In this document: positions 10,430 through 61,440 of the stretch, piece by piece
How positions within the stretch are numbered: position 1 is the stretch's first letter
Layout of the letters: each line of letters begins with the position of its first letter
NCBI GenBank assembly: GCA_023055425.1
Contig: JALGPY010000001.1
Span: 141,757,368-141,821,367, forward strand
DNA: 64,000 nt
From: Linanthus parryae
Lineage: Eukaryota > Streptophyta > Magnoliopsida > Ericales > Polemoniaceae
Direction: 5' to 3'
Notes under the pieces: generated by a model
What the model saw: the letters and a program-made list of their open reading frames with translations, nothing else
Told to the model about the DNA's origin: nothing
Databases searched by the model: none
Made by a program: the position numbers and the translations under genes

Positions 10430-11411
10430 ATGGATTCTTCTGAATCTAGGCACTGGAAGGGCGCTATAAAGAGTGAAATTGACTCTATTGTTTCTGATGG
10501 AACATGGGAGTTAGTTGATCTCCCTCCAGGGTGTTCTACTATCGGGTGCAGGTGGATCTTTAAGAAGAAGTTGAACCCCGACGGGTCAAATCGATAAGTA
10601 CAAGGATAGACTGGTTGCTAAAGGTTTTGTGCAAAGGGAAGGTATTGATTACTTTGATACATACTCTCCAGTTGCTAGGATGACAACAATCCGAATGCTT
10701 ATAGCATTGGCTTCGGTCCATGGTCTTACAATCCATCAGATGGATGTTAAGACAGCCTTTCTTCATGGTGATCTTGAAGAAGAGATTTATATGGATCAGC
10801 CTGAGGGGTTTGTTGCATCAGGCAATGAAAGGAAAGTATGTAAGTTAATCAAGTCCCTTTACGGCTTGAAACAAGCTCCCAAGGATTGGCATAAAAAGTT
10901 TGATGAAACTGTTTTGCCGTTCGGTTTTATTATGAATGAAAGTGACAAGTGTGTCTACGCCAAAGTTAAGGGTAGTGAATGTATGATTTTATGCCTATAT
11001 GTGGATGATATTTTGTTGTTTGAAACCAATATTGAGATTATTAATGAGACAAAAGCTTTCTTGACTAGGCATTTTGAGATGAAGGATATGGGTGAGGCTA
11101 GTGTGATTCTTGGACTGAAGTTGACTCAGTCAGCTGAGGGAATAACCTTATCTCAATCTCATTATATAGAGAAATCTATACTTGAGAAATATGATTATCC
11201 ACAGTGTAGAATCGCTAGTACACCCTATGATCCTAAAATTGCCTTAGTCAAGAATTCTTCAGGTGTACCTGTGTCTCAATTAAGGCATTCTCAGATTATT
11301 GGAAGTTTGCAGTATCTTGCTAACTGTACTAGATTGGATATTTCATATTCCGTGTCTAAGTTGGCTAGATATACTAGATGTCCAAACAGAACTCATTTGG
11401 GATGCTCTTGA
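10430..11411 (+). pseudogene. Copia reverse transcriptase, nearly intact frame
   Basis: The N-terminal RT block (HWKGAIKSEIDSI, CRWIFKKKLNPDGS) is frame-disrupted near 10590. From 10629 the frame is open for 260 residues: DTYSPVARMTTIR, the first catalytic block MDVKTAFLHGDL, SLYGLKQAP, and the catalytic YVDD at about 11000. IGSLQYLANCTRLDISY follows. A 1-bp shift near 11400 separates it from RNase H. Confidence 0.92.
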
Positions 11412-14083: not shown

Positions 14084-17000
14084 TTATGGGCAGTCATACC
14101 CAAGACATCCAAATGAAATACATTTTTCAACCAATTGTGGGATAACCGAATAGTACGACATATCATCCTCAACATAGCCCTTCTTTTCAAAAGAATGGGC
14201 TAGCTGGTTGCCGTTTCTAGGAACAAAGGAATAAGTGATTTCACTAAACTGTTTGGCTAGTTGATTGCAGGTTTCCAGGACTTCCTTCATATCAACTAGT
14301 GCTGTTGCTAGCTTCATCTTCCCACAACTTCCAACCTTGAGTAGATTTATAGCTACCTGAGAGTCTGATTCTACTTCAACTTTCTCAAAGTGAAGTTCCC
14401 TAGCCAGTTCAAGACCACCCTGGACAGCCATGAGCTCTGAAATCAGCGGAGACCTTTGTCTGGGGAGGCGCTGATGTCGGGCCGCGATGAAACTCCCTTC
14501 ACTGTCGCGAATAACGAAGCCTACTCCCGTCGCCTGCCCAGATTCTGACCACGCAGCGTCCGAATTCATCTTGACTCGACCCATAGCCGGACCTTTCCAC
14601 CGTTTATCACCATCTTCAGGTTTCATGAAGCTATCACCCAACAAACCTCTGATTTTAGCTTCTTTAAACCAGTGGATATAATCCTTACCCATGCTAGCAA
14701 CTTCAGAGGGGGATTTGGAGATATTATTAAAACGTAAATTATTTCTTTGCCGCGGGATTGCCCAAATCGTAACCACGAAAGTTTCACAAATATCAGTCGG
14801 ATTGGTGCTCAGAACTGAGGCAATAATATCCCTTGCATTACCTGATAGTGAATGCGCAAACTCCCCTCCAATTGCATCAATCCAAACTCTCTGGGCAAAA
14901 CTACACTGGAACAAAATATGGGTCTCCGTTTCAAAGCCTTCTTCACAATTTTGACACATAACAGGAACTGCCATACCTCGATTTCTCAGATTTGTGGCCA
15001 CTGCTAGTGACGAATGCCAGGCCCTCCAAGTTGTTTGCAGCATTTTCTTTGGGATTTTGAGTCGCCAAAAATTTTTTAGCCACGGTCTATCAATATGACC
15101 CAAAGACGAAGATGGTTCACCTTTCGATTTCACAACCTGAGCTCGGTAGCCGGAGGCTACACTGTACAAACCATCATCCGAGAGACCCCAAGAGAATGAA
15201 TCTGGGGAGGTACAATCCTGCAATGGAATGGTTTTCATGATGTCCACATCAACTGGTAGCAAAAGTTGAGCCAACTTTGCTTCATCCCAACACTGTGCCG
15301 AATGGTTTAAAAGCGAACTAACCTTCAAATCTTCGCTTCCCATAGGGCAACTAGTAATAACCTGGAAAGTACTAAAGCGTACTCCGAAACGCATACGAAA
15401 TTTGAGTACTTGGAGCAACTTCTACATCAAGAATCGTGGAACTGCGATAATACTTGGCTTTCAACACTCGACTAATTAGACTACCCGGATTTCTCAGCAA
15501 TCTCCAAGTGTGTTTGGCTAACAACGCAATATTGAAATCATAGAAATCTCGAAAACCAATACCTCCATTTTATTTTGTTTTCTTCATCTTCTCCCACGCC
15601 ACCCAATTAATCTTCTTTTGACTTTCATCGCCACCCCACCAAAACTGGCGAACTAGGCGCTCAAGATCTAAGCAAGTCTTCTTTGGGATCAAAAAGCAGC
15701 TCATAGTGTAATTTGGGATCGCCTGGATGACTGCTTTGATAAGTACTTCTTTCCCAGCTGTAGATAACTCTTTTCCTTTCCACCTCTTCAATTTCCTTTG
15801 CACCCTTTCCGGTAAAAAAGCAAAGGTTGTCGTTCTTCGTCTTCCAATAGAGGTTGGTAGACCCAGATAACTATCATGCTCAGTGACAACCGGAACTCCG
15901 CAAAGTTGGCTCAATAAGATTTTGTCTTCCTCACTTACATAATCTGAGAATAATACTGAAGATTTCTCGAGATTAAGCCTTTGACCTGAGGCTTCTTCGT
16001 AATACTGCAATATCTCGCGGAGATTTGCAATCTCATCACTTGTGGCCTTCGTAAAAAGGAGACTATCATCTGCAAAGAAGAGGTGTGATATAATCGGACC
16101 ACCCCTGGATGCTGCAAGGCCAGAGAGACGTCCGTCCTGTACAGCAAGAGTCAAACTGCGTGAGAGAGTTTCACTAACAAGTAAGAACAAGTAGGGTGAT
16201 AATGGACACCCTTGTCGTAATCCCCTCTCTGGAATGATAGATCCCTGCACTTCACCATTAACGATGAGACTATAGGATACCATTGTCACACATTTCATGA
16301 CAATATTTATCCACCGAAGGCCGAAACACATCCTTTCAAGTACTGCTCGTAAAAAATCCCATTCTACTCTGTCATAAGCTTTACTCATGTCAGCTTTGAG
16401 GGCCAAAAAACCAACTTTGCCTTTCTTCCTGTTCTTCATGGTATGGAGGAGCTCAAAAGCTGTAATGGTGTTATCAGAGATGAGCCTTCCAGGCACAAAG
16501 GCACTCTGATTCTCTGCAATCAACGAACTCAGAATAGTCTTCAATCTATTTGCCATAGCCTTATTAACAATCTTATAAATTTTATTACATAAACTTATAG
16601 GGCGTAAATCAGTAGCTCTTCTAACTTGCTTAACTTTAGGAATAAGAGCTATAAGAGTATGGTTGAACCTGGCAATATCTCCATCTCCGTTCAGGATTTG
16701 TAGACAAGTGTCTACTACATCCGGACCCACTATGCTCCAATTCTTCTGGTAAAAAAGAGCAGGAAAACCATCCGAACCTGGAGCTTTCACAGGTGCCAAC
16801 TGCCCGAGTGCTTCGTGGACATCATCCCCTGTAAAAGGTTGATTCATGAAGTTGCGCTGCTCCAAGGATACCAGCTGCTCAATACCCGGCATCACCGGCT
16901 CCATCTGTAATCTAGTCGGATCGGAGGAAGTAAAAATAATTTTGAAATAATCTTCAAGAATACCAACTACCTGCTGTGGATCCTCCGTCCATAACCCAGC

Positions 17001-18142
17001 TCCATCTTCCAGGCCGCAAATGCGATTCCGAGCCTTCCGAATATTCGCCTTGCGATGAAAGAAACCTGTATTCTGGTCCCCTTTTTGCATCCACATCTCT
17101 CTAGATCTTGCCTCCACATCTCTTCCTCCCTGAGTAAGAGCTGTAGAATATCCTCCCTAATGGATTTAGCCTCCATCAGAGCCATAGATGTCTGAGACCC
17201 TTTGGTAATGGTCCGGAGCCGGCCACGCAACTGTTTGATCTGTCTCCTGACATTACCGAAAGTATTAAACTCCCATGTCTTCAAAGATCGTGCTATAGTC
17301 GGTAATCTGATATCAACTGGCTCGCCAGAAGTAGTCCAAGTGCTCGAAATAAGTTCCTTGCAGCCTGGATGGTGTAGCCACATTGCTTCAAACTGAAACC
17401 TCCTATTCACACGTCTTTCTGTCCCCGCCTCTAAGCTCCAGAAAGCTTCAATAGGAACATGGTCTGAAACTTCAGCAATCAAATGCTGAACCCTTGCCCT
17501 GCCGAAAGTATCAATCCACGTATCAGACACCAAACAACGATCAAGTCTCTCCCTGATTGCTGCTTCATCCCCTTGATTGTTGCTCCAAGTGAAGCGTGAT
17601 CCAGAGAAGCCCATGTCACGTAACTGTAGCCGATTGACAACACTACAAAAACCCTCTATCTGACTGAAGGGGACTGAGCGACCCCCTTCCTTCTCCAAGA
17701 TAGACGAGAAAGCGTTGAAATCACCAACTACACACCAGGGATTATCCCCTGGATAAAGCATCTCAAGAACCCTCCAAGTGTTATGTCTCTCGTTTCTATC
17801 AGGATCGCCATAGAAGCCAGTGAAAAAACCCTGTTTAGACGCATCCACTAAACAAAGAGTGCCATGTATATGATGATCAGACCAAGTATCCAGATCAAAA
17901 AGGACTGAATCATCCCACAGAAGGGCTAGGCCACCCCTCCTGCCCCCTTCACTTCCGTCACAATCTCTGTAAATGCCATTTTGAAAGCCCAATCTTCTCT
18001 TCACACGGTCCATCTCCTTTGCACACAGTTTGGTTTCCATCAAGAAAATCAAATTCGGCCTTTGTCTCCTCACAAGATCATGAAGAGACACGACGCTACG
18101 GGGGTTGCCAAGCCCCCGCACGTTCCAGCTTAGGAGATTCAT
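14084..18142 (-). pseudogene. LINE ORF2: endonuclease, reverse transcriptase, RNase H
   Basis: ATG at 18142 starts MNLLSWNVRGLG, the N-terminus of plant L1 APE-like endonuclease. METKLC, VVGDFNAF and SDHVPIEAF carry the catalytic Glu, Asp/Asn and Asp-His. A frameshift near 17110 (EEEMWRQ versus the downstream WMQKGDQNTGFFHRKA frame) separates it from the RT. The RT shows KAPGSDGFPA, LRPISLCN, SAFVPGR and the catalytic FADDSLLF. A TAA near 15572 and another shift near 15420 precede the zf-RVT block and a C-terminal RNase H with MNSDAAW, SELMAV and VESDSQ as acidic residues. The product would nick the target and copy the element RNA from the nick. The start overlaps the ORF1 stop by the four bases ATGA, suggesting termination-reinitiation. 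Confidence 0.93.
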
Positions 18143-25339: not shown

Positions 25340-27851
25340 AGTTCTTTTTGAGTGTCCTAGCCGACCGCACTTGCTGCATCTTTATGAACCATTGCATCCC
25401 CGGTTTGAAAATATTTTTTCAGCTGTGGACTTGAATCTGGTCTCCTGGTCCCTTCCTGGTGTCACCAATTTCTTCGGAGGCAATGGCCGGAGTGCGCTTA
25501 TATCTGCAGGTAAAGTGTTTCTGTCCCACTGTGTCTGGTTGGGAGCAGTGTAAATCGTTCCGCTATAGGCCCCCTTAAAGTATTCTTTTGAATAATACAC
25601 GCTCGTATAGTTATACATGACCTCCATGTCGTGTTGCACATCGTAATTACCAAGCTTCCTAAGTTGAGATGCATAAGCACAAGCATGTACGCATGGGAAC
25701 CACATCTCTTGGTATTCTCCACACGTGCAACTCCCGATGACATTTCCAGGGCTAAAATCCACCACGTAACATTTCAGGTCACGATCTCTTACTTCGTACT
25801 CTGTGCAAGTGATTGGACGTACATGCAGCCCTCGAGAGTTGGTCCAATTCTTCAACATTGCCTCTTCCTGCAACTTAGTCAGAAACATCATTCCCATTTT
25901 CTCTAATTCTCCATTTCTCAAGATGAGCCATTGAGCCATTGTGTTGCATGCAAAGGAGAACAATTGAAGAGGCTTGCCGTTCCGTGCATCCAGAAAGCAT
26001 GATTTAATGGACTTTGCATGGTTGGAACAAAATTGTTCGAACCGCGCTGTCTTGCAAAAAGACCTAGCCCACTTCTCCAATCCGGCATCGCGAAAGTAAC
26101 CTTCAATCGTTATATTCTTCACGGTATGCACGTGTGATACAACAATGCCCATGTCCGACAAAGATGTTTCACAGATCTCCTGCTCGAAGGTATACACAAC
26201 TTTAAAAAAATATTTCTCCCACTTCTTCGTGGGGTAATGCGACAACCCGTTCATTTTCAGGTGATGATAGCAGTGGACATAGTTGGAAAGGGGGAACACC
26301 GCCTTAACATAGCTTGGTGTCGATCGAAAACAAAAGTCAGACCATGCATGTATGGCCTAATTTGTTGTAGTTTAGTCAAGAACCATGTCCATGCATCTGT
26401 ATTCTCGCGATCCACCAATCCCCACGCAATGGGATAGCAGTGTTGCTCGCTATCAACCATTGTGCACACAACCAACTGAACAGGTTCTTTCTTCATGTGT
26501 GACATATCAATCACAATTACAGGTCTCATATATTGTATACATGCAATTTGTGCACTGAGGGCCATGAAGCAGTACTGAAATACATTATCAGGGCTCACCC
26601 CAATATCCCACTTCGAACCAGGGTTCAAATCAGCGGTTAAATGCATGAACGCAGGTAGATCTGCATAATTTTGGGCCCTAGTGCCGCTAATTAGACTTTT
26701 ACGCTTTTGAATTGCAATCCATGACGTATGGTACGAGAATTCGGTGCCCATTTCTTTCGCAGTAGCCTGAACATCAGCGATTGAGGGTGTCTTTGTGAGA
26801 TCTTTAAACCGTCCCTGCAATTGCTTCGCTACAACCATGCTAGTGATGTTACGGTGCTTACCGTCAATCATAATTGCGGTACATGTGTGAATGGGATTGT
26901 GGTTCTTAAGGAAATAGTTCAAAACCTCTTTGATCTTGTACGCCCCCACCATCCACTTGCAGTTGTCATCACTACAACGCAGCACTATCCGCACAACCTC
27001 TCACTTGTAGACGTGAAAAGACTAAACGCTCTTAGCAGCAACTATCCTAATAGGCATTAATAGCACGTCAGGTCCGGCAAACAAATCTCCAATCTTCAAA
27101 ACCAGACTGACCTACCAATACCATCACTACCACAACCACTACCACCGGCCTCATCAACAAAACGAGTGCGGTCTATCTGCATAGTTTCCAATGAGAGATT
27201 GTTATGCATATTTGCTTCCTCTCTATCAGACATATCATTGTCATTTACTACATTGGTGGCGTTGTCATGATCGAAGTCAGGTGGACTGAGAGCAATACTA
27301 TTTTCTCCTTCTGCGACGACCAAGGGAGGGCCCATGTCGTAGGCATAGCCCTCGGGGATGATCTGCACACCGTGGAAGTATTCTTCTTCAATCAATGCAT
27401 GGGAGCTATTGTGTTCATCCACGGGAATCAGTTGCATATTTTGGTCATCCATCGGAATTGTCCCGTTATGTACTCCCTCAAGAGCTATATCTGAAATTAC
27501 ATTTTGTTGAAACTCATCCTCCAAAGTAACGTACATTCTAACTTTAAACCCCACAGTACACCAATCAAACAAATCATCGATTTGTATGTCATCACAAAGT
27601 ACGTTATGGGGGAACAAGTCTGCGTCGTCTATCAAGTGATGATAGTGTAAGACGATCTTCTTAGTAGACTCATGATGACCACCCATTCTAACTGAAACAT
27701 CTTCCTTCAATGACTCTACAGTAATGCCTTTACATATCTTGAAATGCGCTGTCTTCAATCTGTCACCCAAGTATTTGTACCTACCTTCGACACGATCCCA
27801 TGCACCGTTCCAGATGACAAGTACTCCTAAACTCTTCACCATCTCTGTCAT
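25340..27851 (-). pseudogene. MULE transposase (MuDR-type) with SWIM zinc finger, broken
   Basis: The N-terminal part (27851-27096) is an acidic leader beginning MTEMVKSLGVLVIWNG. The catalytic core (26994-26257) has VIVIDMSHMKKEP, the first DDE Asp with the usual DGTHLK changed to DMSHMK, and FVFDRHQAM, the second Asp. PIAWGLVDRENTDAWTWFL is the typical MULE core sequence. A frameshift near 26290 leads to VHCYHHLKMN. The SWIM finger CTCGEYQEMWFPCVHACAYA (C-X-C...C-X-H) is at about 25680. After a TAA near 25382 a CCHC knuckle CSKCGRLGHSKRT follows, its last Cys changed to a TGA. The product would cut and paste the element. Frameshifts and stops make it non-functional here. Confidence 0.9.
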
Positions 27852-28036: not shown

Positions 28037-28340
28037 GCGAAGACAGAAACGACCAACAGACATTGATCGTCACGATCTTCCCAATTGAATGACACAGACG
28101 AACCAGACGACCTTGGTCGTCTCTGTCTTCACAAGTGAATGTCCGGACGACCCTGTCTACCGACTTGGTCGTCTCCGTCTTCACAGGTGAATGACACAGA
28201 CGAACCCGACGACCTTGGTCGTCTCTGTCTTCACAAGTGAATGACCAGGCGACCCTGTCGACCGGACTTGGTCGCTCCGTCTTCACAAGTGAATGACAAA
28301 TACGAACCGGACCTTGGTCGTCTCGGTCTTCACCAGCCTT
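28037..28340. repeat. 50-bp/100-bp tandem array with GACGACC...GGTCGTC palindromes
   Basis: The block GACTTGGTCGTCTCCGTCTT + CACAAGTGAATG repeats about every 50 bp. Successive copies alternate in their linker (ACACAGACGAACC versus CCGGACGACCCTGTC), giving a 100-bp higher-order unit. Each copy can pair internally through GACGAC and GTCGTC. Confidence 0.8.
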
Positions 28341-29344: not shown

Positions 29345-29690
29345 GAGAATCAGACAGAGAAAACCTAGACTCACCGAGACGACCTGAGTGGGATGTCTGG
29401 GTCGTCTGGGTCGTGTGGGTGGTTCTCGGTTTTTTCCAGTTCACTCAGACATAGATGACCTAGACTCAGCGAGACGACCTGGGTGGGTCGTCTAGGTCGT
29501 CTGAGTGTTCCCTCAGTGATTTTTTAGTTCACTCAGACAGAGACGACCTAGACTCACAGAGACGACCTGGGTGGGTCGTCTGGCTCGTCAGGTTCGTCTG
29601 AGTGTTCCCTCGGTGGTTTTCCCAGACGATCCATATATTTTCTAGGTCGTCTCGGTCTTAGTGAATGAAGACCAAGACGACCAAGTCCAT
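29345..29690. repeat. ~95-bp tandem array, GACGACCTGGGTGGGTCGTC type
   Basis: Three units start with variants of GACCTAGACTCACCGAGACG, continue with CCTGGGTGGGTCGTCTGG and end with TTCACTCAGACA. It shares the GACGACC/GGTCGTC palindromic vocabulary of the array at 28037-28340 but with a longer period. Confidence 0.8.
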
Positions 29691-38494: not shown

Positions 38495-40233
38495 CTACAT
38501 TAGGTGACGATAATCCGGGCCGATGTGCTGGTGGATCAAGTAATCGTCACCGTTGGATACTTCAAACATCATGCCCGGATGAAGAAATTGCTGCTGGTGA
38601 TGATGATTGTGGGGCCTATGGACCTCCTTCTGTCTACGGAGCTCCATCACCTTCCGGTGCGAATTCGAATGTTTGGTCAACACAAAAGTCGGGCTTGCAG
38701 CGGGCCGGTACTCGGGCACGAGCCGACCCGACTTGTACCGTACCCCACACGCATTACAGAGTGTTTTAGGGCCCATTGGCCCTGTCCTCCACTGCGGCGT
38801 CTTATCAGTGGCGCAGTGGAGGCACCTCCTTCCATCGCCGCCACTCGTGGCAGCAGAATTATCTGCCACGTCGGCGACATCTTTCTTTTTCGGAGCTGAT
38901 TTGACAGTCTTCTTTCCAGAGTCGGTGTCCGATGAAGTCGGAGCAGGATTTTGGGTCGGAGAGAGGACCAAGAGCCGGGAGGCCCAGTTTCCGGGTGCGG
39001 CGCGTGAGCGCTTGCTGCGGGCCTTGCCGGGCACTTCAGGGCGGAATACCGGGTTGATTTGGTTTAGTTCGGGTTGGGATTGACGGGATTCCGATGCAGG
39101 GTTGGGCCGGGCATTGACGCCCGAAATCAGCTGCAACTTCTGGAATTCTTCACTGGAGAATGAGTCCTCCACAAAATTTGATAGCCACTCGAGCTCAGCT
39201 ACATCTTCATACTGTAACATTATCAAAATAATAATCATTAGTTGAAAATTAAAAAATATTCCCCAACAAATTGAAGATTAGGAAGACGTTGCAAATTAGG
39301 ACTATCAACTATTGTGGTATTATTGTTACTGTATCCTTTATTCATTCTCCTACTAAATATGCTCTTGTATTGCACTTAACTTTTACTTTTTTCAGCCCTC
39401 ACTTTATTTTTCAGTATTACCAGTAATAATTGGGGATAGACTAAATATGGTTCAAGTAGTACTTAGTATTAGTTAATAATGTGTTTAGCTGTTCTTAATT
39501 AATTTTCATGTCATTATTAAATAGTGAGATAGAAATACGATTATTTTATGTCTATTTGTAGCTTACCATCGTACTAAATATAACTCAGCTAATCTAATTC
39601 AATCCGATATTCAACTAATCTAATTCAGTCATGTTCAATCCGACCAGTTCCATAAACCAAAAATGTCATTAATTTGTAGCTTATGATCGTAGTATTTGGT
39701 CTGTTTCTCTTGAATAATCCCAATTTACTCTAGGGATATCACTTCGACTCGTTAATTTGGTCAACTAAACGACGCAACAATTCGGTAATCTTTTCCTGGT
39801 GTTGTAGAATTTGATACTCTACAAGACTATGAAAATATTGTCAAATTCGTGCAGTGTTTTGCTAACCAATTCACCGGATAAACTGAAGCCTTAGGAAATT
39901 CCGAGCAAAAACTACTTTTACCCGATAGAAAGCGCTAATAATGAAATAGAGAATTACCGGGACGCAGAGGTCGGTGGAGAAGTGAGCGTCAGTGAAGCTC
40001 CGGGACCCCAACTCGCCGGGAAAGTGATGGTTGTCATTGGCGGCGGAGAAGGAGGAGGAATTGCTGTCAAAAAGGGTGAGGGTGGAGGAATCGGCGGGGG
40101 CGTCGTCGTCTGCGGCGGTGTCGTCGTTGGGGTAGTTGAGGAGGTCGTCGATGACAAAATTGTCCGGGTTGTGGTGGTGGTGGTGGTTGTAGTAGTTTCC
40201 TGCAGCTTGGTAGAATTCTGGAGTAGTTTCCAT
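38495..40233 (-). CDS. GATA-type zinc-finger transcription factor (subfamily I/A)
   Basis: Exon 1 is 40233-39958 (92 codons, ATG at 40233, donor CCG|GTAATT). Exon 2 is 39211-38495 (acceptor TTACAG|TATGAA). They join in phase 0 to a 330-residue protein. Exon 1 is acidic with a His run and a conserved [11 protein letters not shown] start. Exon 2 opens [19 protein letters not shown], the conserved block of plant GATA2/4/9/12-type proteins, has a basic KARSKRSR stretch (likely nuclear signal), and carries the single type-IV finger C222-X2-C225-X18-C244-X2-C247 followed by the basic [15 protein letters not shown] tail. Such factors bind WGATAR sites in the nucleus; Arabidopsis relatives act in light and brassinosteroid responses. 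The frame is intact. The intron harbours the repeat shared with 13.5 kb. Confidence 0.95.
39788..39855 (-). repeat. Dispersed repeat inside the GATA intron
   Basis: Reverse complement of the repeat at 13546-13612, about three-quarters identical over 70 bp, sharing the exact word GAATTTGACAATATTTT and the CTACAACACCA end. Confidence 0.55.
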
Positions 40234-45754: not shown

Positions 45755-46336
45755 TCACCTGTCCTCCCTAGTGATGGCCGGGATACAACTCGAGCTCCTA
45801 GCAAGACCACCCTTCTTGACACAGCCAGGGGCGGCGGCCTTCAAATCTCTAGGGCTAATAGACTTAGCCCTAATGGAGCTCTTCTTAAAGAGCTCCCTCA
45901 TAGCCTCAGCTTGGTACAACACAGGATAAGCCCTACCAAACCTGTTGAACTTAACACAAGCACTCATATGATCCTCCACTGCCTTCTCTTTGTTTCCTCC
46001 ATTCTTCACCATCTCTTCCTTCACAGCTTCTGAACACAACCCGCAAACAAACTTGCCCGAGAACTTGTCTCGGACTCTCTTCACGTAGTCGGGCGTGCAC
46101 TCCTCGGACATGCCACAACACTCGCACTTGGAGTCCTCGACGACCTCTGAGATGGGAGGGAGAGGGAGAGGAAGAGGGAGTTTTGCGACTTCAGAGAGAG
46201 ACTCCTCTTTGCTTAGTTCGAAGGAGATGTCGGAGATTGTTCTCTGGAGGCTCTCCATTGACAGCCTTGGAGGTTTCTGGACCTTGTTCATGCCGCTTTT
46301 CATGTAAGAACTCAAGCTCTCCACATTTGGTGCCAT
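45755..46336 (-). CDS. DUF1677 family protein
   Basis: A single-exon frame of 193 residues. The ATG at 46336 (MAPNVESLSSYMKSG) is preferred over an upstream in-frame ATG because a TATA motif sits between them and similarity of style starts here. The family core is a Cys-rich block, CECCGMSEEC at residues 71-80 and KFVCGLCSEAV around 96-105 (Cys 71, 73, 74, 80, 98, 101), a likely metal site, followed by a conserved helix HMSACVKFNRFGRAYPVLYQ. The N-terminus is Ser-rich with RLSMESLQRTISDISFEL. The C-terminus is basic with RSSSCIPAITRED. DUF1677 proteins are plant-specific with no established biochemical role; function cannot be inferred from sequence alone. The frame is intact. Confidence 0.93.
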   Translation of the reverse strand: MAPNVESLSSYMKSGMNKVQKPPRLSMESLQRTISDISFELSKEESLSEVAKLPLPLPLPPISEVVEDSKCECCGMSEECTPDYVKRVRDKFSGKFVCGLCSEAVKEEMVKNGGNKEKAVEDHMSACVKFNRFGRAYPVLYQAEAMRELFKKSSIRAKSISPRDLKAAAPGCVKKGGLARSSSCIPAITREDR

Positions 46337-46410
46337 AGCCAGAGAGAGAGAGAGAGATGGAACAGTAATGGTTTGAGAAGGTAGGTATAGAGCAATAGTA
46401 ATGGCAGATG

Positions 46411-46419
46411 TTATATATA
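46411..46419 (-). promoter_or_regulatory. TATA box of the DUF1677 gene
   Basis: TATATATAA on the minus strand, 75 bp upstream of the ATG at 46336, leaves room for a short leader that is CT-rich. Confidence 0.6.
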
Positions 46420-46979
46420 CTGAGATGATGGTCATGGTGGTATCTGTTTTCTTCAAGTAGGGGACCTCAGGCCATGCAAAAGTATGTGGATTGTAATCTT
46501 TGAAAGGCATATTTTTTCCACTTCTGTGGACTACAAGGAAGATCTCATGTAAGCATTAAATTGTTTGTGTTAGTGTTTTTTGTATGTGTGTGTGACAGAA
46601 GAGTAATAGTAGTAGCTAGGGTTCACAGGTATCTTGATGAGGGAGGGGGTGAAAAGGGTTCCTTTCTGGGTTTCTCTGGTGGAAGAGCAAGAGACTTGGT
46701 AAAGGAGGATTGGAAAAGCTTTGTGGTCATCTTCTTAAAGAAGAAAAGCAAAAGAACTTGTTTTAGTTACCTTTTGGTGAAAATAAAAACTGACTTTTGA
46801 TTCAAGTTGTTGAACTTTAAATTGTGACCACTGGAATATAGATAAAACCTATAACACATATAGCTATTTCATAGAAATTATGTGTACCTCATACTAGGAA
46901 CTCATTTCTTACCATCCAGCCCCAGTGACATTACTTAGCTAGCAAAGAGCCTGAGTACTGTATTAATCAGTTGCCAATC

Positions 46980-47340: not shown

Positions 47341-48118
47341 ACCTTGGTTGGTTGAGACACATTTCACAATTTACATCATTCACTATTTCCAGGACAGGAG
47401 AGAGGGACCCTCAAGGTTGGGGTCCAGCATATTTTTTTTTATATACCACGAATATGGAGTAATCTTAACAAAGCATTTCATGAAACATTATGACATGAAC
47501 ACTGGCGCCGAGCTACTATATCCATAAAACCAATGGTAACGCAACAATCACTTAACATGCCCAGTTTCCTATCACAAGCAAGACATGCAAAACTCAAGAA
47601 ACTTTCACAGCATCAGGTAAACATTCCCACCAGAGTAAAAATTGTCTTAATATGGGGTGAAATCTCAAAATGATGTAAAATCAACATATATATATATATT
47701 TTTAACGGGCGTCTATGAGATAATGCTTCTCGAGACTTCTAAAGTTAACATGACCCTTCAGTAAGAGCAAGGGCGCAAAAACCAGTTGTAACAAAACTGC
47801 ATCAGGCAGATATATCTATACTTCTGTAACTACGCTGAGGTCTACCATTTTAATCAATTAACCCAGAAACTGACCAAATGCAATAAGAGGCTATCAGGTT
47901 CTTGTCTACATCCAACCTTCATTTGAGAGACTGGCATATACATCAATGCGCGCTCAAGGTTCCAAAAGAGAGTATTCACAACCATCACGAAACATCTACT
48001 AAGTTGGCCGGCGACATATTCTTCTCGAATGTACTCTTTCCTGAAACAAGACGCAACCACAACGGTGTTTTTAAGGAAAGCTGAACCCAAAATGTGAATT
48101 AAGAAAGAAAACTGAAAA
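47341..48118. other. Intergenic/3' flank of the SHH gene
   Basis: No coding sequence recognised. The part adjoining 48118 should include the SHH 3' UTR. Contains a short (AT)n run at about 47684-47699. Confidence 0.45.
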
Positions 48119-51100
48119 TTAGACATTGTTGTACAAGGACTCAACCTCGTAGTTGTCATGGTCGTATCGAATCGTGAAGAGACACCTGCATCCCCTTACA
48201 TCGTGCATTCTCCTTATGATGTCCACGATATAGGCGTCGTAGTATTTTGCCTCGTCCTCCCTCTCCTAATGAAATTAATACCCAAATAAATAGATAAATT
48301 AAACTAGGGCAGGAGACACCACTTAGTCACTTACACTACTACCATGTTATTTATTGCATTCATTTATAAATTAGATCAGAAAACTAAAATTACCTGAAAG
48401 CAGAGTACCAGATCTCCAGCTTGAAGCTTTTCACAATCTGAATTCTCCAAAGGGATTGAGCGTGGACGGATATCCCTTCCGACTCTAATCCATTCGTCAT
48501 CGCTGGCTCCAAATCCTACGAATCTTACCCGAACTTCCTGTAAGAAAACATTGTATGTCAACTTCGACTTTCACATTATCTAATATGGTGCAATTGCAAC
48601 AACTAGTGTACTTCGCTTCCAGCCAAATCAAGAAATATATGTATTCAAAAAACATGTACAAATAGTAATATACGACAATATTAGAAGACACAGATTCCAC
48701 ATTCAATTGTACCCCATAGTGCCAAAAGATCAAACATGGCAAGATGTCTTCTGACATGCATTGAACTGGATCAACATTGTACTGGTGATGTATCATGAGA
48801 AAAATAGGGAAACAGAGTATTAAAACCAAGGGTTTCTTCAATTTCCGTAAACAATCACAACAACTACACAGGAAGCATATATGAGTAGCAGCCCAATCAC
48901 AACGGATGAAGCAAGTTTTTTATATACCTCAGAAGAAGCAGGAAAACATAAAAGAGAAGACAAGACAAACCGAATACATTTTCAGCTTCTTATGCTCAGT
49001 ACTAAAACTCAATGAACACAACTTGTCTATAACAAATCAGATGTGAACAGGAATAGTTATGGTCTCTCCATCTATGCTATTGAATTATCTCTAAACTTGA
49101 GATATTATCTCGTCTTTGGTTTGGTATTTGACATCATTCGGAATAATTTTAAGATAAATCGGAGCCAATCATTTTGTCAGCATTTTCATATCTTCATTAA
49201 TTCTATTATTCAACTGATAGTATACTCAAGACTGTTACCCTTCCTCTGCAAACTATAGGTTTAACACTAATTCTAGTGAAAAAAGCAGCGGCAGTATAGC
49301 ACAAGTCGAACAGTTTTTGCACCTATATAAATAGTAAGGCTTTGAGTTGGTATTTCAATTACTTACAGGTTCATCTGGACGAAGATACCTGAGGCCAACA
49401 AGTTCCTCCACATCATACCTGTAGAGATACAAACATTCACATTAGCATCTGTTTAAAGTCTGGACCATGTCTTCAACACGGTGTGTGTATACAAAAATGT
49501 ATCAATAATTAGAAAATCATGGAAACTTCTCACAACACAATACAAATGATTCATTGAAATGGTAACTCGAGGCCATATACTAATATGTTCTTTTCTATAA
49601 ATGTATATAAAAGTTAAAAGTTTAAACACTGGAAGAAACAGGTCTCCTCTAAGATGTCAACTTTTCATACATCTCTTAGTCCCATCTACAGTAGAAAATT
49701 CATGGCAACATGACAAATGCGGTTCAAGTATCTACCGGTATTATCAGAATTATACTAATAGCTGTTTCAGTTATGAGACCCTCTGTATATAAGATATGCA
49801 CTCAGATGAGGAACTGATCCGAAAAACTTGGCGCATACATTAATCAAATTCAACTTTGCATTAAGGAAAGTACAGAACTCGGCAACCAAAACTAATGCAT
49901 ATTTCTGGAGCCCCATCTATGTGCTTTTAAAGTACATGATACAAACAATTAGCAAATTTCATCGGGATGAAAAGGAATAAAATTGAACCCCACATGCAGC
50001 AAACACGACCCAAAGAAAAGAAGAACACCAATGTTATTGCACAGAGAGGAAGCAATTACAAAATTTTCGTGACCAAAAAAATGAAGAGCTATGTGAGGGT
50101 TTACCATGCTTTATCTAAAGAAGACCTGGCCTCATATTTGAACTTTGACAGATCTGGAACCTTTTCTCCTGCTTCTGGAACTAGGATTGTCAAAACAAAT
50201 GCTATTCATAAGAAAAGTCAAAGGAAGTACAAAGGCCTGGAAGAGAAAACTCAAAGCAATCACAAAGCATAAGGCCATGGAAACAAATGTACCAGCATAT
50301 CTTCACAATGGAAAAAGATAACAGACAGTGATGAAGATCTTCAGCAAATAATTATTCTAATTTAGTGGATAGACAAAATCATATAAGTTTCACACACTTT
50401 TCACATATTTCAAAAAATATATATATATATAAGTTTCACACACTTTTGAGCCAGTTTCATAAGACTTCAATATTTCCGGACAAATGGTCGTGCAACTTGA
50501 GGTCTAATTCTGGATTCAGAAAGGTCTTGAATCAAATCGCTTCACCATTTTTCTCTGGTCGCACCTCAAAGTACAACCACCGTTGATTTCAGTTCTGCAC
50601 TTATATCAATTTTGCTTAATAAATAGACTCAGATCTTTTACCAAAGTACAACCACCTAGTTCCTGTGTGCCTCTCCAGGTTATAGATGCCCAAGGAGCTG
50701 CCCCCATTTGCAAGGCAGTGATTTTAACAATCTCAAGATATGAAATCAGCATGAACTATAAAGTGAATGCCCTAATCTATGATCTTTTAGGGGTATCTAA
50801 ATTTCCAACAGCAACAGCGTAACTGACTTTTGTGCCGTTTGTCATTTTAAATTTGAGTATTCATATGCATGTTGCAATGAGAACTAGGAAGCTAAAATAA
50901 TGTTTACAACACTTCATTAAAAGATTCCGTTCCTATCTACCTCCCACACCCGAGCCACCCAAAGGAGAATTCAGAACGTGTGTAACACATAACAATGTCC
51001 AAGGGACAGCTCCTAAAAGAACTTTCCATCAGATTTTAAAAAGTAGAATCCCATGTTTTGTCCATTTTCTTTTTATTTCACATTCTTAGACTAAATTATT

Positions 51101-54100
51101 AACCCCAAACTGAATCGTTGGTCCTAGAGAATGGAGCAGAACTCTAAACATGTATCAGAGTTTTAATGCACCTTCGTATTTACAGGATCACTAGGCCGTG
51201 CATTTTGTTTATACAAACAAAAATAATAATAAAAAATCTACTACCATTCAACTCATTACAAGGCTTCTCTGTAGCTCTCAGAACGCATCTGAAGTTTCAT
51301 TACAGGTCCCCAAACATACTAAAGCCGAAGAGTATCAGTATTTATGTTTCTTACTTTTAGAGTCAACCAAGATATCAGTCTGTTGTAGACGGCCTTCAGT
51401 ATTATCAACCCCCCTAGAATTAATAAGTAGAGCTAGGGGAACCGGTTAGTATCATTATCCAAGCGGTCCCGTAAGCTTGTTTAGAAAGCTCTACCATGGG
51501 AACCAGAGGCCATGTGTAATTAGCTTCTCACATAATACTAAAGACTAACCACTAAGTCAAATACCTTTAGAAACTTGAGGACTTTCATTGTCTTTGATCG
51601 GACGATTTTTATCATCAACCAATTGCTCCTGATCATTAGCTGATAAACAGAGGCCATGTGTAAATATCTTCTCACATACTACTAAAGACTAACCACCAAG
51701 TCAATTACCTTTAGATAGTTGAGGACTTTCATTGTCTTTGTTCGGACGAGTTTTATCATCAACCAATTGCTCCTGATCATTAGCTGATCTAATATTGTCT
51801 GACTGATCCGATTGCCGCCTATTTTGAAACCAGCTTTGTACCTAAAGTGTGATAATAACAACAGGAGTTCCACAAAACAGTTATGGGCATGAAATTAAAA
51901 CAAGTTTTACATAGCCGGAACAAGGAAAAGAAGATGAGAGGGAGAACCTCAGCCCATTTCACTCTAGGTTTGCCAGCTCGGCCTTGAGAGCTGCTGAAAA
52001 CAAGTTTCAAAAGAAACGTCAAATTCTGGAAATACATTGATAGTGCATCCATTGTGAAGAATTCATTTGTTACATGCATGCTTATGCTTAACAGGAGTGA
52101 AAGAAAATCACCTGAATTGTTTGGCAAGTCTTTTACAGAAATCCTGATCAAGAGATTGTTCACCAGACTCTTTGTATATTTTCTCCATCTTCTCAATCTG
52201 GCAAGGGTGGGGAGCAAAACAGAATCTGGTTATGTGCATCTTAATCTCCAGAAGGATAGAATTCAAGGTAAATAAACATGGAAACAAACTAAAATTTGAC
52301 ACCTCTATGCCTACATAGAAAACAAACGATGTGTTTTCTGCTGACAGCGGTGATGGAAAACCAGTCTAGCTTTTATGTTTCTAGAAATTACCATATAAGT
52401 CATTCGTCGTATAAGATATCTAAGAACATGCACTGCTAGATTTGTGGGTCTTAACAAGAAGCCATTATCTCGAAGCTCATGATAACAAAAACCTACAAAA
52501 ATATTCTTAACATGGCACCATATGTTTATAACAATCTGGAGTGATAAATGTTACATGCCCTAGCAAACTCTGATGCGTCCCAATACATGCTATACAGTTT
52601 TACCTTTTAGGCCTTTCTCTATCAGCAAGATGTAAAAAAGAACAAAGGTTACATATCAAAAGACTACACAGAGCTTCCATGCTCAATTGGCTAAAAATAC
52701 ATAATCAAGAGCTAAGACCCACAGAAATTTGTAAATGTTGGTGGGTACTTGAACCCTCCTGGCTACCAGACCCTGCCATGCCATTTGACATGACTCCAAT
52801 TACCTTCTGATAAGGCAAGCATGTTACAACATGCAAACACAATCTTAATCCCCTATCAAGTCCAAAAGACTGTGCAAGGGTAACCGCACTCATTACGCTT
52901 TAGGTATTCCAGAAGCATTTCGCTCACCGTTCAAAAACATTGTCTTGATGAAGCAAATTTACTGGCAAATAACTTCTTTTATGAGCTCCTATGACTACAG
53001 GACTAAGTGCTTTTGAAAGACCTCTTCCTTGGTTCCTTCTGAGAACAAAGAAGTGCAGACCTGCGCAAGCTTAGCAGGCAGGTCCTGTAGCATCTCCCAA
53101 TATAATTAAGGAGTGCCTTTTAATATTGTAACGCAAAAAAGAGGAGCAAGAGCTTCAGAAATTCTATGCCAATATAACTATTTTTCTCAATCACTTGTAT
53201 TGTTCATTATATACTTTTCAAATCTGTGAAAGATCTTTTTACTACTTTACATCTATGTTTTCAGGCTTCGGCTAAACGATAAGCTACAAGCTATAGTCCA
53301 ATTTGAAAAAATAATAATTTTTTATCCTTTATGTAAGAAGCAGATGATTTATTTCTTTTACTTTCCTTTCCCTTGCAAAGTTCCGGTCCAAAAACATCCT
53401 ATTAGTCTTGTAGAAAATATGAACAAAAAGAAAAACCAAAATTAGAATCCAAGTGCTTGTGTATGGAAATCTGAGAGCTATGTGAATCTTAAGGGACGTA
53501 CCAAATTGGCGGCTTGAATCGATTTTCTTGGCTTTAGTCAAATTCTAAAAGCAATTTAGAATAGGCCAGCAATAACCAGATGCATTTAATCAACAAATGA
53601 AAGACTTCAACCATCGTAAACGACAAAATCAACGTTACTAAACGACAAACGAACCTTCCATGAATGCAAAGCGAAAACTGAATGTTAGCATAAATTAGGA
53701 AAGATACAGAAATCGACAAACACCCCTCTATCCTGCTTACTTCGACACCACGCCAAGGACTCCCCCAAGTGAAGTTTTAGCAAAATTACGCACATTGACA
53801 TCATTGCTAAATTCCCTATAGAACCAATGAATTGCACCTTTTGATCTACATTTATGCCTGCAACTAGTTCTAGGCTTTTGATTAAATATGCAAAATCATA
53901 AATATGCACTTTCATTAATCTCAATAACAGCACATAAAAATTTCATTAAACCCAGAAAAGAACATGGGAGAAAACAAAAACCCATCAAGTATTTCAGCAT
54001 TCCATAACATAAACACATGTAATCAGTCATCAAAGAAGATGGGTTTTGCCTGCAAACTAGGGTTTCATTGATACAACAAACAATTACACACCAGACCCAT

Positions 54101-54320
54101 TTCACCCTCTAAAAACAATTAATCATAGCACAAAAAATGGAGTGATTCACCTTCAATTCAGGCAAAAACGGAACCACCCAACGTTGAAACAAAAAACAAC
54201 CTCTGGAACTCAAAACCCAGTAATGATAGGCATTGGAGAGAGCGAAAGGAGTTGCGATTATACCTCTGGAGTGGTGAAGCCAGAGTGGAGCTTTCTGTCT
54301 CTCGGGCGAAGGCGAACCAT
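48119..54320 (-). CDS. SAWADEE HOMEODOMAIN HOMOLOG (SHH1/SHH2-type)
   Basis: Eight exons: 54320-54264, 52197-52112, 51993-51948, 51841-51709, 50180-50105, 49418-49367, 48537-48394, 48265-48119. All use GT-AG introns with consistent phases, giving 741 bp and 246 residues; the Arabidopsis relative is of similar size. Residues about 12-75 form a divergent homeodomain (FTTPE|IEKMEKIYKESGEQ, recognition helix VQSWFQNRRQ at 64-73). Residues about 119-246 are the SAWADEE domain: FKYEARSSLDKAWYDVEEL, RFVGFGASDDEWIRV and H219, C224, C226, likely zinc ligands. SHH1 binds H3K9-methylated, H3K4-unmethylated histone tails and recruits RNA polymerase IV for siRNA-directed DNA methylation. The acceptor of exon 3 is a tandem CAGCAG, allowing one Ser more or less. 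Intron 1 is about 2.1 kb. The C-terminus (VESLYNNV) is short. Confidence 0.93.
51504..51788 (-). repeat. 141-bp tandem duplication inside the SHH gene
   Basis: Copies at 51504-51644 and 51648-51788 both start CAGAGGCCATGTGTAA and end ATTAGCTGAT, with roughly ten differences. Each copy contains the 3' part of exon 4 (ANDQEQLVDDK...), its splice donor and the start of the following intron. Confidence 0.93.
51565..51639 (-). other. Potential in-frame alternative exon 4b of SHH
   Basis: The duplication joins intron sequence to duplicated exon sequence, creating the acceptor-like CTCTGTTTATCAG directly before CTAATGATC; the copied donor AAAG|GTATTT ends it. The exon would be 75 bp, phase 1 at both ends, adding 25 residues (ANDQEQLVDDKNRPIKDNES...) between residues 107 and 108. 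No stop codon is introduced. Whether it is spliced in cannot be told from DNA. Confidence 0.55.
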
Positions 54321-59059: not shown

Positions 59060-59722
59060 TTTGAGGAGCCCACACAACTACCACCTAAGAGAGCACAAGA
59101 TCATCAGATTCCTTTGAAAGAAGGGGCAAATCATGTTTGTTTAAGGCCTTATAGGTACCCATTTTTGCATAAGAATGAGATGGAGATGATGGTCAAGGAG
59201 ATGTTACAAAATGGAACCATACAGCCAAGCACAAGCCCCTTTGCTGCTCCAGTACTTTTAGTCAAGAAAAAAGATGGCACTTGGAGGTTTTGTGTGGATT
59301 ATACTGTTAAGAAAAAATTTCCTATTCCAGTTATAGATGATCTCATGGATGAATTGGGAGAAGCCTCAGTGTTTACTAAACTGGATTTGAGAGCTGGTTA
59401 TCACCAAGTGAGGATGGTTGATCATGACATATATAAGACAGCTTTCAGAACTCACCAAGGGTTATATGAATTTAGTGTCATGCCATTTGGCCTCACAAAT
59501 GCCCCATCTACTTTCCAGTGTCTCATGAATGAAGTCTTCAAGGAATATCTCAGAAAAATGGTGCTAGTCTTCTTTGATGACATTCTGATTTACAGTTATA
59601 GCATGGAAGACCACAAACAACATCCGCAATCTGTATTTTCCACTATGAGACAGCACCGGCTAGTTGCCAAGAGGAGAAAGTGCTCATTTGGCATGGAATC
59701 TGTAGAATATCTGGACACATAA
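59060..59722 (+). pseudogene. Gypsy reverse transcriptase, internally deleted
   Basis: Recognised by FAAPVLLVKKKDGTWRFCVD, FTKLDLRAGYHQVRM, MPFGLTNAPSTFQ and the catalytic FFDDILIYS. After VDY the expected conserved RxLNxxT segment is missing: the frame jumps directly to TVKKKFPIPVIDDL, an in-frame deletion of roughly ten residues of the fingers. Frame lost at about 59720. Confidence 0.9.
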
Positions 59723-59765
59723 TCAGTAAGGAGGGGTTTAAACTGATCCTAATAAGCTGCAAGCC

Positions 59766-60290
59766 ATGGCTAATTGGCCAATTCCAAAGAATGTTAAAGA
59801 GCTGAGAGGGTTTCTTGGCCTAACAGGGTATTATAGGAGATTTGTTAGGGGTTATGGTAATATTGCCAGACCCCTCACTCAGCTGTTAAAGAGAGGTAAC
59901 TTTGATTGGGGTAGTGAAGCAACTGACTCATTTGAGGCTCTCAAGAAGGCTATGACTACTAAACCTGTGTTGGCATTCCCCAATTTCAAAGAAGTGTTTG
60001 TGGTGGAAACTGATGCCTGTTATGATGGGATTGGAGTTGTGCTCATGCAACAACAGAAGCCTCTACCTTATTTTAGTAAAGCCTCGTCAGCTAAACACTT
60101 GGGAATGTCCACTTATGAAAAAGAGCTGTTAGCTCTATTCAATGTCATAACTAAATGGAGATCTTACTTAGAAGGTGCCAAATTTATTATCAAAACTGAT
60201 CACCACAATTTGAAATTCTTATTGGAGCAAAAACTCACCACTGTCTTGCAACAAAAAGTGGATTACCAAACTGTTGGGGTCGCACTATGA
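59766..60290 (+). pseudogene. Gypsy RNase H
   Basis: Connection block [18 protein letters not shown], then RNase [30 protein letters not shown] and [12 protein letters not shown] with catalytic acids. The usual ETDAS reads ETDAC. Confidence 0.9.
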
Positions 60291-61440
60291 TATACAATAC
60301 AAGAAGGGACAGGAGAACAAGGCTGCATATGCATTATCTAGAAGAGCCACTTTGAAAGGTGCTATTGTGGCTGAGTGTGCTCTCATAACCACTGTAACAC
60401 CAAAATGGTTGCAGGAGGTTAAGGACAGTTATAAGGAGGATGAATGGGTATTGGAGAAGATAGCCACATTGGCAATTGCCCCTAACTCCTTACCTGGTTT
60501 CAAGTTACAAGATGGTGTACTCAAGCAAGACAGCTTATTGTATGTGGGCACTCACACCAAACTCAGGGAGCAGATGATCAAAGAACTTCATAATACTGGT
60601 GTAGGAGGTCACTCTGGTATTTTGGGAACCTACAAGAGAGTCGAGCTTCTCTTCACATGGCCTGGTCTCAAAAAACAGGTCAAGGATTGGGTTAAGCTTT
60701 GTGACATTTGTCAAATGATGAAAGCTGAGCACTTACCTTACCCTGGTTTCTTTCAACCATTGCCAATCCCAGAAAAACCTTGGGAGCACATAGCTATGGA
60801 TTTTGTAGAAGGGCTACCTGCATCTGAGGGTAAGACTATTATCTTGGTGGTTATTGACAAATTATCTAAGTATGGGCATTTTATTTCACTTTCCCACCCT
60901 TACACTGCCGAGAGTGTGGCTGATTTTTTCTTCCAAAATGTCTGCAAACTTCATGGACTTCCCAGTTCTATAGTCAGTGATAGAGACACAGTCTTCCTTA
61001 TCCATTTCAAGAATTCTCTGTTTAAACTAATGGGGACTCAGCTCAAGTACACTATTGCCTATCACCCTCAGACTGATGGGCAGAGTGAGACACTAAATCA
61101 ATACTTAGAACTTAGAAGTCTATTTAAGGTGCTTGAGTGGTGACAGGCCCAAGAATAGGGCTAAGTGGCTATGCTTGGCTGAGTGGTGGTATAATACCAA
61201 TTACCACTCAGCACTGCAGTTAACCCCATTTGAAGCACTTTATGGGTTCCCTCCTAGACATTACAACTTTCACTAGCTTAACAAGTCTGGTCTACCTGAA
61301 GTGGATGCTTTTTTCAAGGACAGAGCTGCCTTGTTACAGTTACTCAAGGACAATTTGGCTAAAGCTTAAGAGAGGATGGTCCATTATGAAAATAAGCACA
61401 AGACTAAAAGGGTTTTTCAATAAGGTGATTGGGTTTTTCT
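60274..61440 (+). pseudogene. Gypsy integrase
   Basis: The zinc-binding HHCC module is seen as LHNTGVGGHSGILGTYKRV ... CDICQMMKAEH. The core has AMDFVEGLP (first Asp), SDRDTVF (second Asp) and YHPQTDGQSETLNQ (Glu). After about 61135 the C-terminal part is frameshifted: WYNTNYHSALQLTPFEALYG can be pieced from other frames. Confidence 0.9.

What the first reader, a model, noticed from the sequence alone, without database searches (positions are those of the whole stretch)
51504..51788. Intragenic duplication creates a phase-compatible extra exon in an RdDM histone-reader gene
A 141-bp tandem duplication in SHH copies the end of exon 4 plus its donor. The junction places a pyrimidine-rich acceptor (CTCTGTTTATCAG) before the copied exon part. 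The new exon (51639-51565) is 75 bp, phase 1-1 and stop-free, so inclusion adds 25 residues in the linker between homeodomain and SAWADEE domain. This would be a recent route to a new isoform of a Pol IV recruitment factor.
Basis: partly seen in the sequence, partly recalled or inferred. Interest (0 to 1): 0.75.

Follow-up and report, generated by a model that had tools for sequence, protein, structure and literature searches.

The report
Duplicated exon end in plant SHH1
A plant gene for a DNA-methylation chromatin reader carries an old 141-letter tandem copy of the end of one of its exons, which could be spliced in as a spare 25-amino-acid piece of a floppy linker, but nothing yet shows that the plant does so.

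Summary
Two 141-bp copies (51504-51644, 51648-51788; 9 mismatches, 144-bp spacing) span the exon 4/intron 4 boundary of an intact nine-exon minus-strand gene. The junction creates CTCTGTTTATCAG, and the predicted 75-nt exon 51639-51565 is phase 1-1 and open. The gene belongs to the SHH1 clade, not SHH2, by tree and apparently by synteny with a DUF1677 gene. At about 7% divergence the duplication is probably millions of years old rather than very recent, which also argues against an assembly error. The donor is good; the new acceptor is mediocre, and the intron it would define is 69 nt, against at least 105 nt for every native intron. None of the 120 listed homologues (of 609 found) carries this repeat, and no transcript could be examined. 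If included, the 25 residues extend a linker predicted to be disordered and very variable in length, so an effect on Pol IV recruitment is not implied. Most likely it is a neutral passenger with an optional, weakly used cassette exon. Exon or intron birth by boundary-spanning tandem duplication is already known, with a close mirror case in a potato RNA-dependent RNA polymerase gene.

The parts
47999..54320 (-). SHH1 gene, 9 coding exons: 54320-54264, 52197-52112, 51993-51948, 51841-51709, 50180-50105, 49418-49367, 48537-48394, 48265-48146, 48040-47999; 251-residue protein
   Evidence: all introns GT-AG, no internal stop; Pfam SAWADEE and Homeodomain; SHH1 clade
51709..51841 (-). exon 4 (133 nt, phase 0 in, phase 1 out): end of the homeodomain and first part of the linker
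   Evidence: Pfam
51648..51788 (-). duplication copy A: last 80 nt of exon 4, its donor and 61 nt of intron
51504..51644 (-). duplication copy B, 132 of 141 identical to A
51645..51647 (-). 3-nt junction (TTT on the - strand; GTT at the corresponding place after copy B), completes the new acceptor tract
51640..51708 (-). would-be new 69-nt intron, GT...AG, YTNAY branch-site candidate TTTAC with A 22 nt from the 3' end
51565..51639 (-). candidate cassette exon, 75 nt, phase 1-1, stop-free; adds ANDQEQLVDDKNRPIKDNESPQVSK
   Evidence: splice scores
50181..51564 (-). remaining part of intron 4 (1384 nt) after the candidate exon
45755..46510 (-). DUF1677 gene, apparent syntenic neighbour of SHH1 in several eudicots
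   Evidence: Pfam; same-contig hits

Best explanation
Shown from sequence: a tandem duplication of about 144 bp across the exon 4/intron 4 boundary of SHH1 copied the last 80 nt of exon 4, the donor and 61-64 nt of intron. The joint put an intron tail (CTCTG-TTT) before the exonic ATCAG, making a candidate 3' splice site that neither parent end had. Inferred: the duplication persists mainly as a neutral intronic passenger. The default product is still exon 4 (copy A) joined to 50180, giving the 251-residue protein. Copy B acts as an optional, weakly used cassette exon. When the 69-nt intron is removed and the copy-B donor is joined to 50180, a 276-residue protein with a longer linker results. 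When the copy-B donor is used without removing the 69 nt, the third codon after the copy-A lysine is a stop (109 residues, no SAWADEE domain), and the mRNA would be expected to be degraded.
For: Geometry and reading frame of each product. With approximate recalled Arabidopsis matrices donor B scores 4.1 (donor A 5.2; native range -0.4 to 5.9) and acceptor B 1.3 (native -1.2 to 6.7; the native intron 4 acceptor is -1.2); it is the only symmetric open pseudo-exon at its own thresholds in the gene's introns. Reasons to think it is weak or optional: with a matrix from the gene's own introns the acceptor (3.1) is below all eight native ones (4.2-12.5, which trained the matrix) and 65 of 297 AGs do as well; the 69-nt intron compares with a native minimum of 105 nt. 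No sign of coding constraint on copy B: 4 differences in 80 exonic nt versus 6 in 64 intronic nt (Fisher p 0.34), three of the four exonic ones changing an amino acid (read). At one linker site the Asn shared by 52 of 120 homologues (27 have a gap there) is kept in A and is Ile in B.
Against: With the recalled matrix the new acceptor outscores the native intron 4 acceptor it competes with, and it lies much nearer, so inclusion could be common. No indel or stop has entered copy B despite 7% divergence, which would also fit use of the exon. At a second linker site copy B's Val is found in 9 of 120 homologues, one of them the Rhododendron protein P0021 (SPQVS), while A's Leu is not among the six commonest residues, so the sites do not all point to A as the conserved copy. 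No RNA data were available.
Confidence: 0.53

Rival explanations
1. Exon B is a regularly used, possibly regulated cassette exon, so the plant makes two SHH1 isoforms differing by 25 linker residues.
For: Complete productive geometry; the only symmetric open pseudo-exon at its thresholds with the recalled matrix (one of two in intron 4 with the gene's own matrix); about 2.2% of 11280 modelled breakpoint pairs would give an equally good in-frame acceptor; some homologue models have extra residues at about this exon junction, e.g. Camellia P0005 and P0006.
Against: None of the 120 listed homologues (of 609 found) carries this repeat; acceptor mediocre with the gene's own matrix; short intron; copy B shows no coding constraint.
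Confidence: 0.27
2. Exon B is now constitutive: the gene has gained an intron (69 nt) and an exon, and the normal protein is 276 residues.
For: Donor A is strong and the nearby acceptor B outscores the distant native acceptor with the recalled matrix; TTTAC branch-site candidate at -22, the same motif as the putative branch site reported in the potato RdRp case (PMC4974935, section 5 read).
Against: 69 nt is well below the native intron minimum of 105 nt and, from recall, near the functional limit of plant introns; no sign of coding constraint on copy B.
Confidence: 0.12
3. Splicing liability: two competing donors make a share of transcripts that retain the 69 nt and stop early, lowering SHH1 output.
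For: Donor A 5.2 versus donor B 4.1; distal-donor-only product is 109 residues with an early stop; the gene sits on a fast-evolving branch.
Against: Old duplication retained with the rest of the ORF and splice sites intact.
Confidence: 0.06
4. Assembly artefact (false tandem copy).
For: Only one sequence of this locus was available.
Against: Nine scattered substitutions over 141 bp; a mis-assembled repeat would be near identical, unless divergent haplotypes were joined.
Confidence: 0.02

Closest known systems
[quoted passage not shown] abstract and section 5 read)
   Same: Tandem duplication crosses an exon-intron boundary, the copies differ at ten sites, most splice signals are inherited from the parent, and the putative branch site is TTTAC.
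   Different: Mirror image: there the copied part carries the 3' splice site and a cryptic donor is recruited; here the copied part carries the donor and the joint itself makes the acceptor. There splicing was shown by 106 RNA-seq reads and the gain was polarised on a tree; here neither could be done.
Tandem duplication of AGGT-containing exon segments (Rogers model as described in PMC4974935; Drosophila cases in Lehmann et al. 2010, PMC2891723, passages read)
   Same: Tandem duplication supplies both ends of a new intron.
   Different: Here the intron interior is largely old intron sequence, not intronised exon.
Whole-exon tandem duplication giving alternative exons (search listing only)
   Same: A second, phase-symmetric copy of coding sequence downstream of the parent exon.
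   Different: Only the last 80 of 133 nt of exon 4 were copied, so the two copies cannot be mutually exclusive; B can only be added after A.
SAWADEE HOMEODOMAIN HOMOLOG 1 (SHH1)
   Same: Homeodomain plus SAWADEE domain, SHH1 clade.
   Different: Long branch, and 17 of 97 highly conserved positions changed.

Membership tests
SHH1 orthologue | N-terminal homeodomain and C-terminal SAWADEE domain | tested here: met
   Pfam Homeodomain 25.4 bits (cut-off 22.9), SAWADEE 142.9 bits (cut-off 28)
SHH1 orthologue | Falls with SHH1 and not SHH2 | tested here: met
   Tree of 45 rows (24 of the 120 listed SHH1-type hits and 20 of the 120 listed SHH2-type hits, chosen by hand): branch between the sets 100/100; window grouped with six SHH1 rows that are Ericales from recall (96/88). 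Set labels follow the names given
SHH1 orthologue | Conserved gene neighbourhood | tested here: met
   SHH1 and DUF1677 hits appear to lie on the same contig (same organism and contig length) in 11 species, compared by eye: Dillenia, Xanthoceras, Tripterygium, Tetracentron, Dipteronia, Reevesia, Ricinus, Melia, Paulownia, Rehmannia, Quillaja; serial gene numbers, where given, are about 2-10 apart. In others, e.g. Pistacia, Flemingia, Malania, Gossypium, the listed hits are on contigs of different length
SHH1 orthologue | Association with Pol IV, role in RdDM | not testable with these tools
   Needs protein and methylation experiments
SHH1 orthologue | Histone-binding and zinc residues of the SAWADEE domain kept | tested here: inconclusive
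   31 of 34 columns invariant in the 65-row alignment A1 are kept; F121, F137 and H140 (P0002 numbering) are changed. Which residues bind histone or zinc is from recall only
Intron or exon gained by tandem genomic duplication | Tandem duplication that crosses a splice boundary and supplies the splice signals | tested here: met
Intron or exon gained by tandem genomic duplication | New junctions seen in RNA | not testable with these tools
   No transcript data; none of the 120 listed homologous proteins carries the repeat
Intron or exon gained by tandem genomic duplication | Absent from outgroups, present in a clade | tested here: inconclusive
   Absent from the 120 listed proteins, but the best-scoring relatives are only about 60-62% identical; no genomic DNA of relatives was reached
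Mutually exclusive duplicated exons | Two complete interchangeable exons | tested here: not met
   Only 80 of 133 nt are copied; joining exon 3 to B gives a premature stop

The most novel reading that the evidence does not exclude
A fast-evolving SHH1 in an unsampled, probably Ericales-related plant lineage uses a boundary-spanning tandem duplication to make a second isoform with a doubled linker segment, altering the spacing between the homeodomain and the histone reader and so the targeting of Pol IV.
Probability: 0.12. Interest if true: 0.6.

Novelty: new member of a known kind. Interest (0 to 1): 0.3.

Why it matters
It is a clean natural example of how one tandem duplication can supply a donor, an intron body, an acceptor and a frame-neutral exon at once, in a gene of the RNA-directed DNA methylation pathway. 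Whether the exon is used can be settled by RT-PCR. If used, it would complement the potato RdRp case of intron gain by boundary-spanning duplication, with the opposite polarity.

Tried and rejected
Rejected: assembly error (scattered substitutions); SHH2 identity (tree); a divergent non-syntenic paralogue (the DUF1677 neighbourhood appears shared); mutually exclusive exon use (premature stop when exon 3 is joined to B); a dispersed repeat as source (no other copy in the window).

Led nowhere: naming the species. The 120 listed DUF1677 hits are only 59-72% identical and come from scattered taxa, and the best-scoring SHH1 hits are about 60-62% identical, so only an Ericales-like placement of SHH1 is supported. 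The 'own genome' search did not complete. No Rfam family reached its gathering score in the window. Paper searches for 'partial exon duplication' (5 papers), for SHH1 with alternative splicing (16 papers, 12 listed), and for exonization with tandem duplication (5 papers) showed no report of SHH1 exon duplication in their listings (titles and abstract starts only). The minimum length of plant introns is recalled; the two papers opened for it only cite Goodall and Filipowicz 1990 in their reference lists. Splice matrices are approximate values from memory; one search repeats the control with the gene's own sites, with a less favourable result for the acceptor and one further decoy exon (51012-50941). 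The chance model uses the recalled matrix.

Full report
Observation. The window holds two head-to-tail copies of 141 bp, 51504-51644 and 51648-51788, with 9 mismatches and a start-to-start spacing of 144. Three bases lie between them, so a 144-bp unit with 10 mismatches describes it equally well. No clear microhomology is visible at the ends (read by eye). The unit has no other copy in the window.

Gene. On the minus strand nine exons from 54320 to 47999, with GT-AG introns, give an open reading frame of 251 residues plus stop. The protein has Pfam Homeodomain and SAWADEE matches, and its SAWADEE part matches the solved Arabidopsis SHH1 chain and chains named HB transcription factor, whose domain sequence is 100% identical to a maize protein named SHH2. 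A tree of 45 rows (24 of 120 listed SHH1-type and 20 of 120 listed SHH2-type proteins, chosen by hand) puts the window protein inside SHH1 with 100/100 support between the two sets, next to Camellia, Actinidia, Bertholletia, Rhododendron, Diospyros and Sarracenia. The neighbouring DUF1677 gene appears to lie on the same contig as SHH1 in 11 species, judged by organism name and contig length (compared by eye; in other species the listed hits are on different contigs), so this looks like the syntenic orthologue. The distinction matters: SHH1 acts with Pol IV (PMC3141008, passages), while Arabidopsis SHH2 was found in a SWI/SNF complex and not with RdDM components (PMC9170682, passages).

The gene evolves fast. 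Its end branch is 1.22, against 0.21-0.94 for the 24 other SHH1 rows. It departs from 17 of 97 positions that are at least 90% conserved in the 120 hits; the next highest count is 13 with gaps left out, and the median is 2 with gaps counted. Of 34 columns invariant in an alignment of 59 SHH1 and 6 SHH2 proteins it changes three.

The candidate exon. Exon 4 (51841-51709) ends in phase 1. The junction of the two copies reads CTCTGTTTATCAG|CTAATG, and an exon 51639-51565 of 75 nt enters and leaves in phase 1 without a stop. Since the copied part is coding sequence read in the same frame, 'open' follows from a length divisible by three and is not independent evidence. In a model of 11280 breakpoint pairs, 7.6% gave an acceptor as good and 2.2% an in-frame one (recalled matrix).

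Splice signals. With approximate recalled Arabidopsis matrices donor B scores 4.1 (donor A 5.2) and acceptor B 1.3 (native range -1.2 to 6.7), and no other symmetric open pseudo-exon reaches both values in the eight introns. With a matrix from the gene's own eight introns the acceptor is weaker than all native ones (which trained the matrix), 65 of 297 AGs do as well, and one further decoy exon appears. The new intron is 69 nt with a TTTAC candidate branch site at -22; native introns are 105-2066 nt.

Products. Exon 4 to 50180 gives 251 residues; with exon B, 276. Using only the distal donor gives an early stop at 109 residues. Skipping exon 4, with or without B, gives a premature stop.

Age and constraint. 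Ten of 144 differences give a Jukes-Cantor distance of 0.073, or 5 to 24 million years at assumed rates of 7e-9 to 1.5e-9 (rates recalled). Differences are not significantly rarer in the exonic than in the intronic part (4 of 80 versus 6 of 64, p 0.34). Three of the four exonic ones change an amino acid, at three codons (read). Two of these codons can be held against relatives, and they disagree. Copy A keeps the Asn found in 52 of 120 homologues at that column (27 have a gap there), where copy B has Ile (6 of 120). At the other, copy B's Val occurs in 9 of 120 and in the Rhododendron stretch SPQVS, while copy A's Leu is not among the six commonest. So which copy is the more conserved is not settled.

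Would 25 residues matter? In a model of the Camellia homologue P0002 built on those 59 SHH1 and 6 SHH2 proteins, residues 76-112, the linker, are below pLDDT 50, while most of the two domains is above 80. Linker lengths in the 115 of 120 hits that could be parsed run from 25 to 217 residues, and 6 of 115 are at least as long as the 78 residues the extended form would have (window linker 53). One unnamed protein, P0023, has its own exact ten-residue tandem repeat in the linker, and Dionaea P0040 has a 20-residue near-repeat at 60% identity; no other of the 94 hits long enough for the 20-residue test exceeds 35%. Seven hits (P0005, P0006, P0033, P0057, P0061, P0076, P0111) show extra residues about this exon junction, by eye; these are database proteins whose exon borders I did not see, not proven isoforms. 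So an added 25 residues is the sort of change this protein tolerates.

Known kind. Potato RdRp gained an intron by a tandem duplication across an intron-exon boundary, with RNA-seq proof (PMC4974935, abstract and section 5). Drosophila has cases from exonic duplications (PMC2891723, passages). The present case is the mirror image of the potato one, without RNA proof.

Verdict.

Noticed in passing
47999-54320 (-): The SHH1 gene lies on a long branch and changes 17 of 97 highly conserved positions although its frame and splice sites are intact; accelerated evolution of an RdDM factor in this lineage may be of more interest than the duplication.
   Followed up: partly
45755-46510 (-) and 47999-54320 (-): SHH1 and a DUF1677 gene are neighbours here and appear to lie on the same contig in 11 other eudicot species.
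   Followed up: partly
10629-11411 (+), 14084-18142 (-), 26257-26994 (-), 59114-61143 (+): Transposon remains by Pfam: an RVT_2 reverse transcriptase (copia type), endonuclease, RVT_1, zf-RVT and RVT_3 ORFs (LINE type), a MULE transposase, and RVT_1 with Integrase_H2C2 (gypsy type; its rve match is just below cut-off). The type names are mine.
   Followed up: no
28059-28333 and 29398-29589: Diverged tandem arrays of about 50/102 bp and 88 bp units whose consensus units share GGTCGTCT.
   Followed up: no
38495-39238 (-): GATA zinc-finger gene (Pfam).
   Followed up: no
proteins P0005 and P0006 (Camellia): Two Camellia SHH1 database proteins carry extra segments at the place that corresponds to the exon 4/5 junction here, which may reflect cryptic exons in the same intron.
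   Followed up: partly
proteins P0023 (unnamed) and P0040 (Dionaea): Independent internal repeats in the SHH1 linker of other plants, so linker lengthening by duplication may recur.
   Followed up: partly
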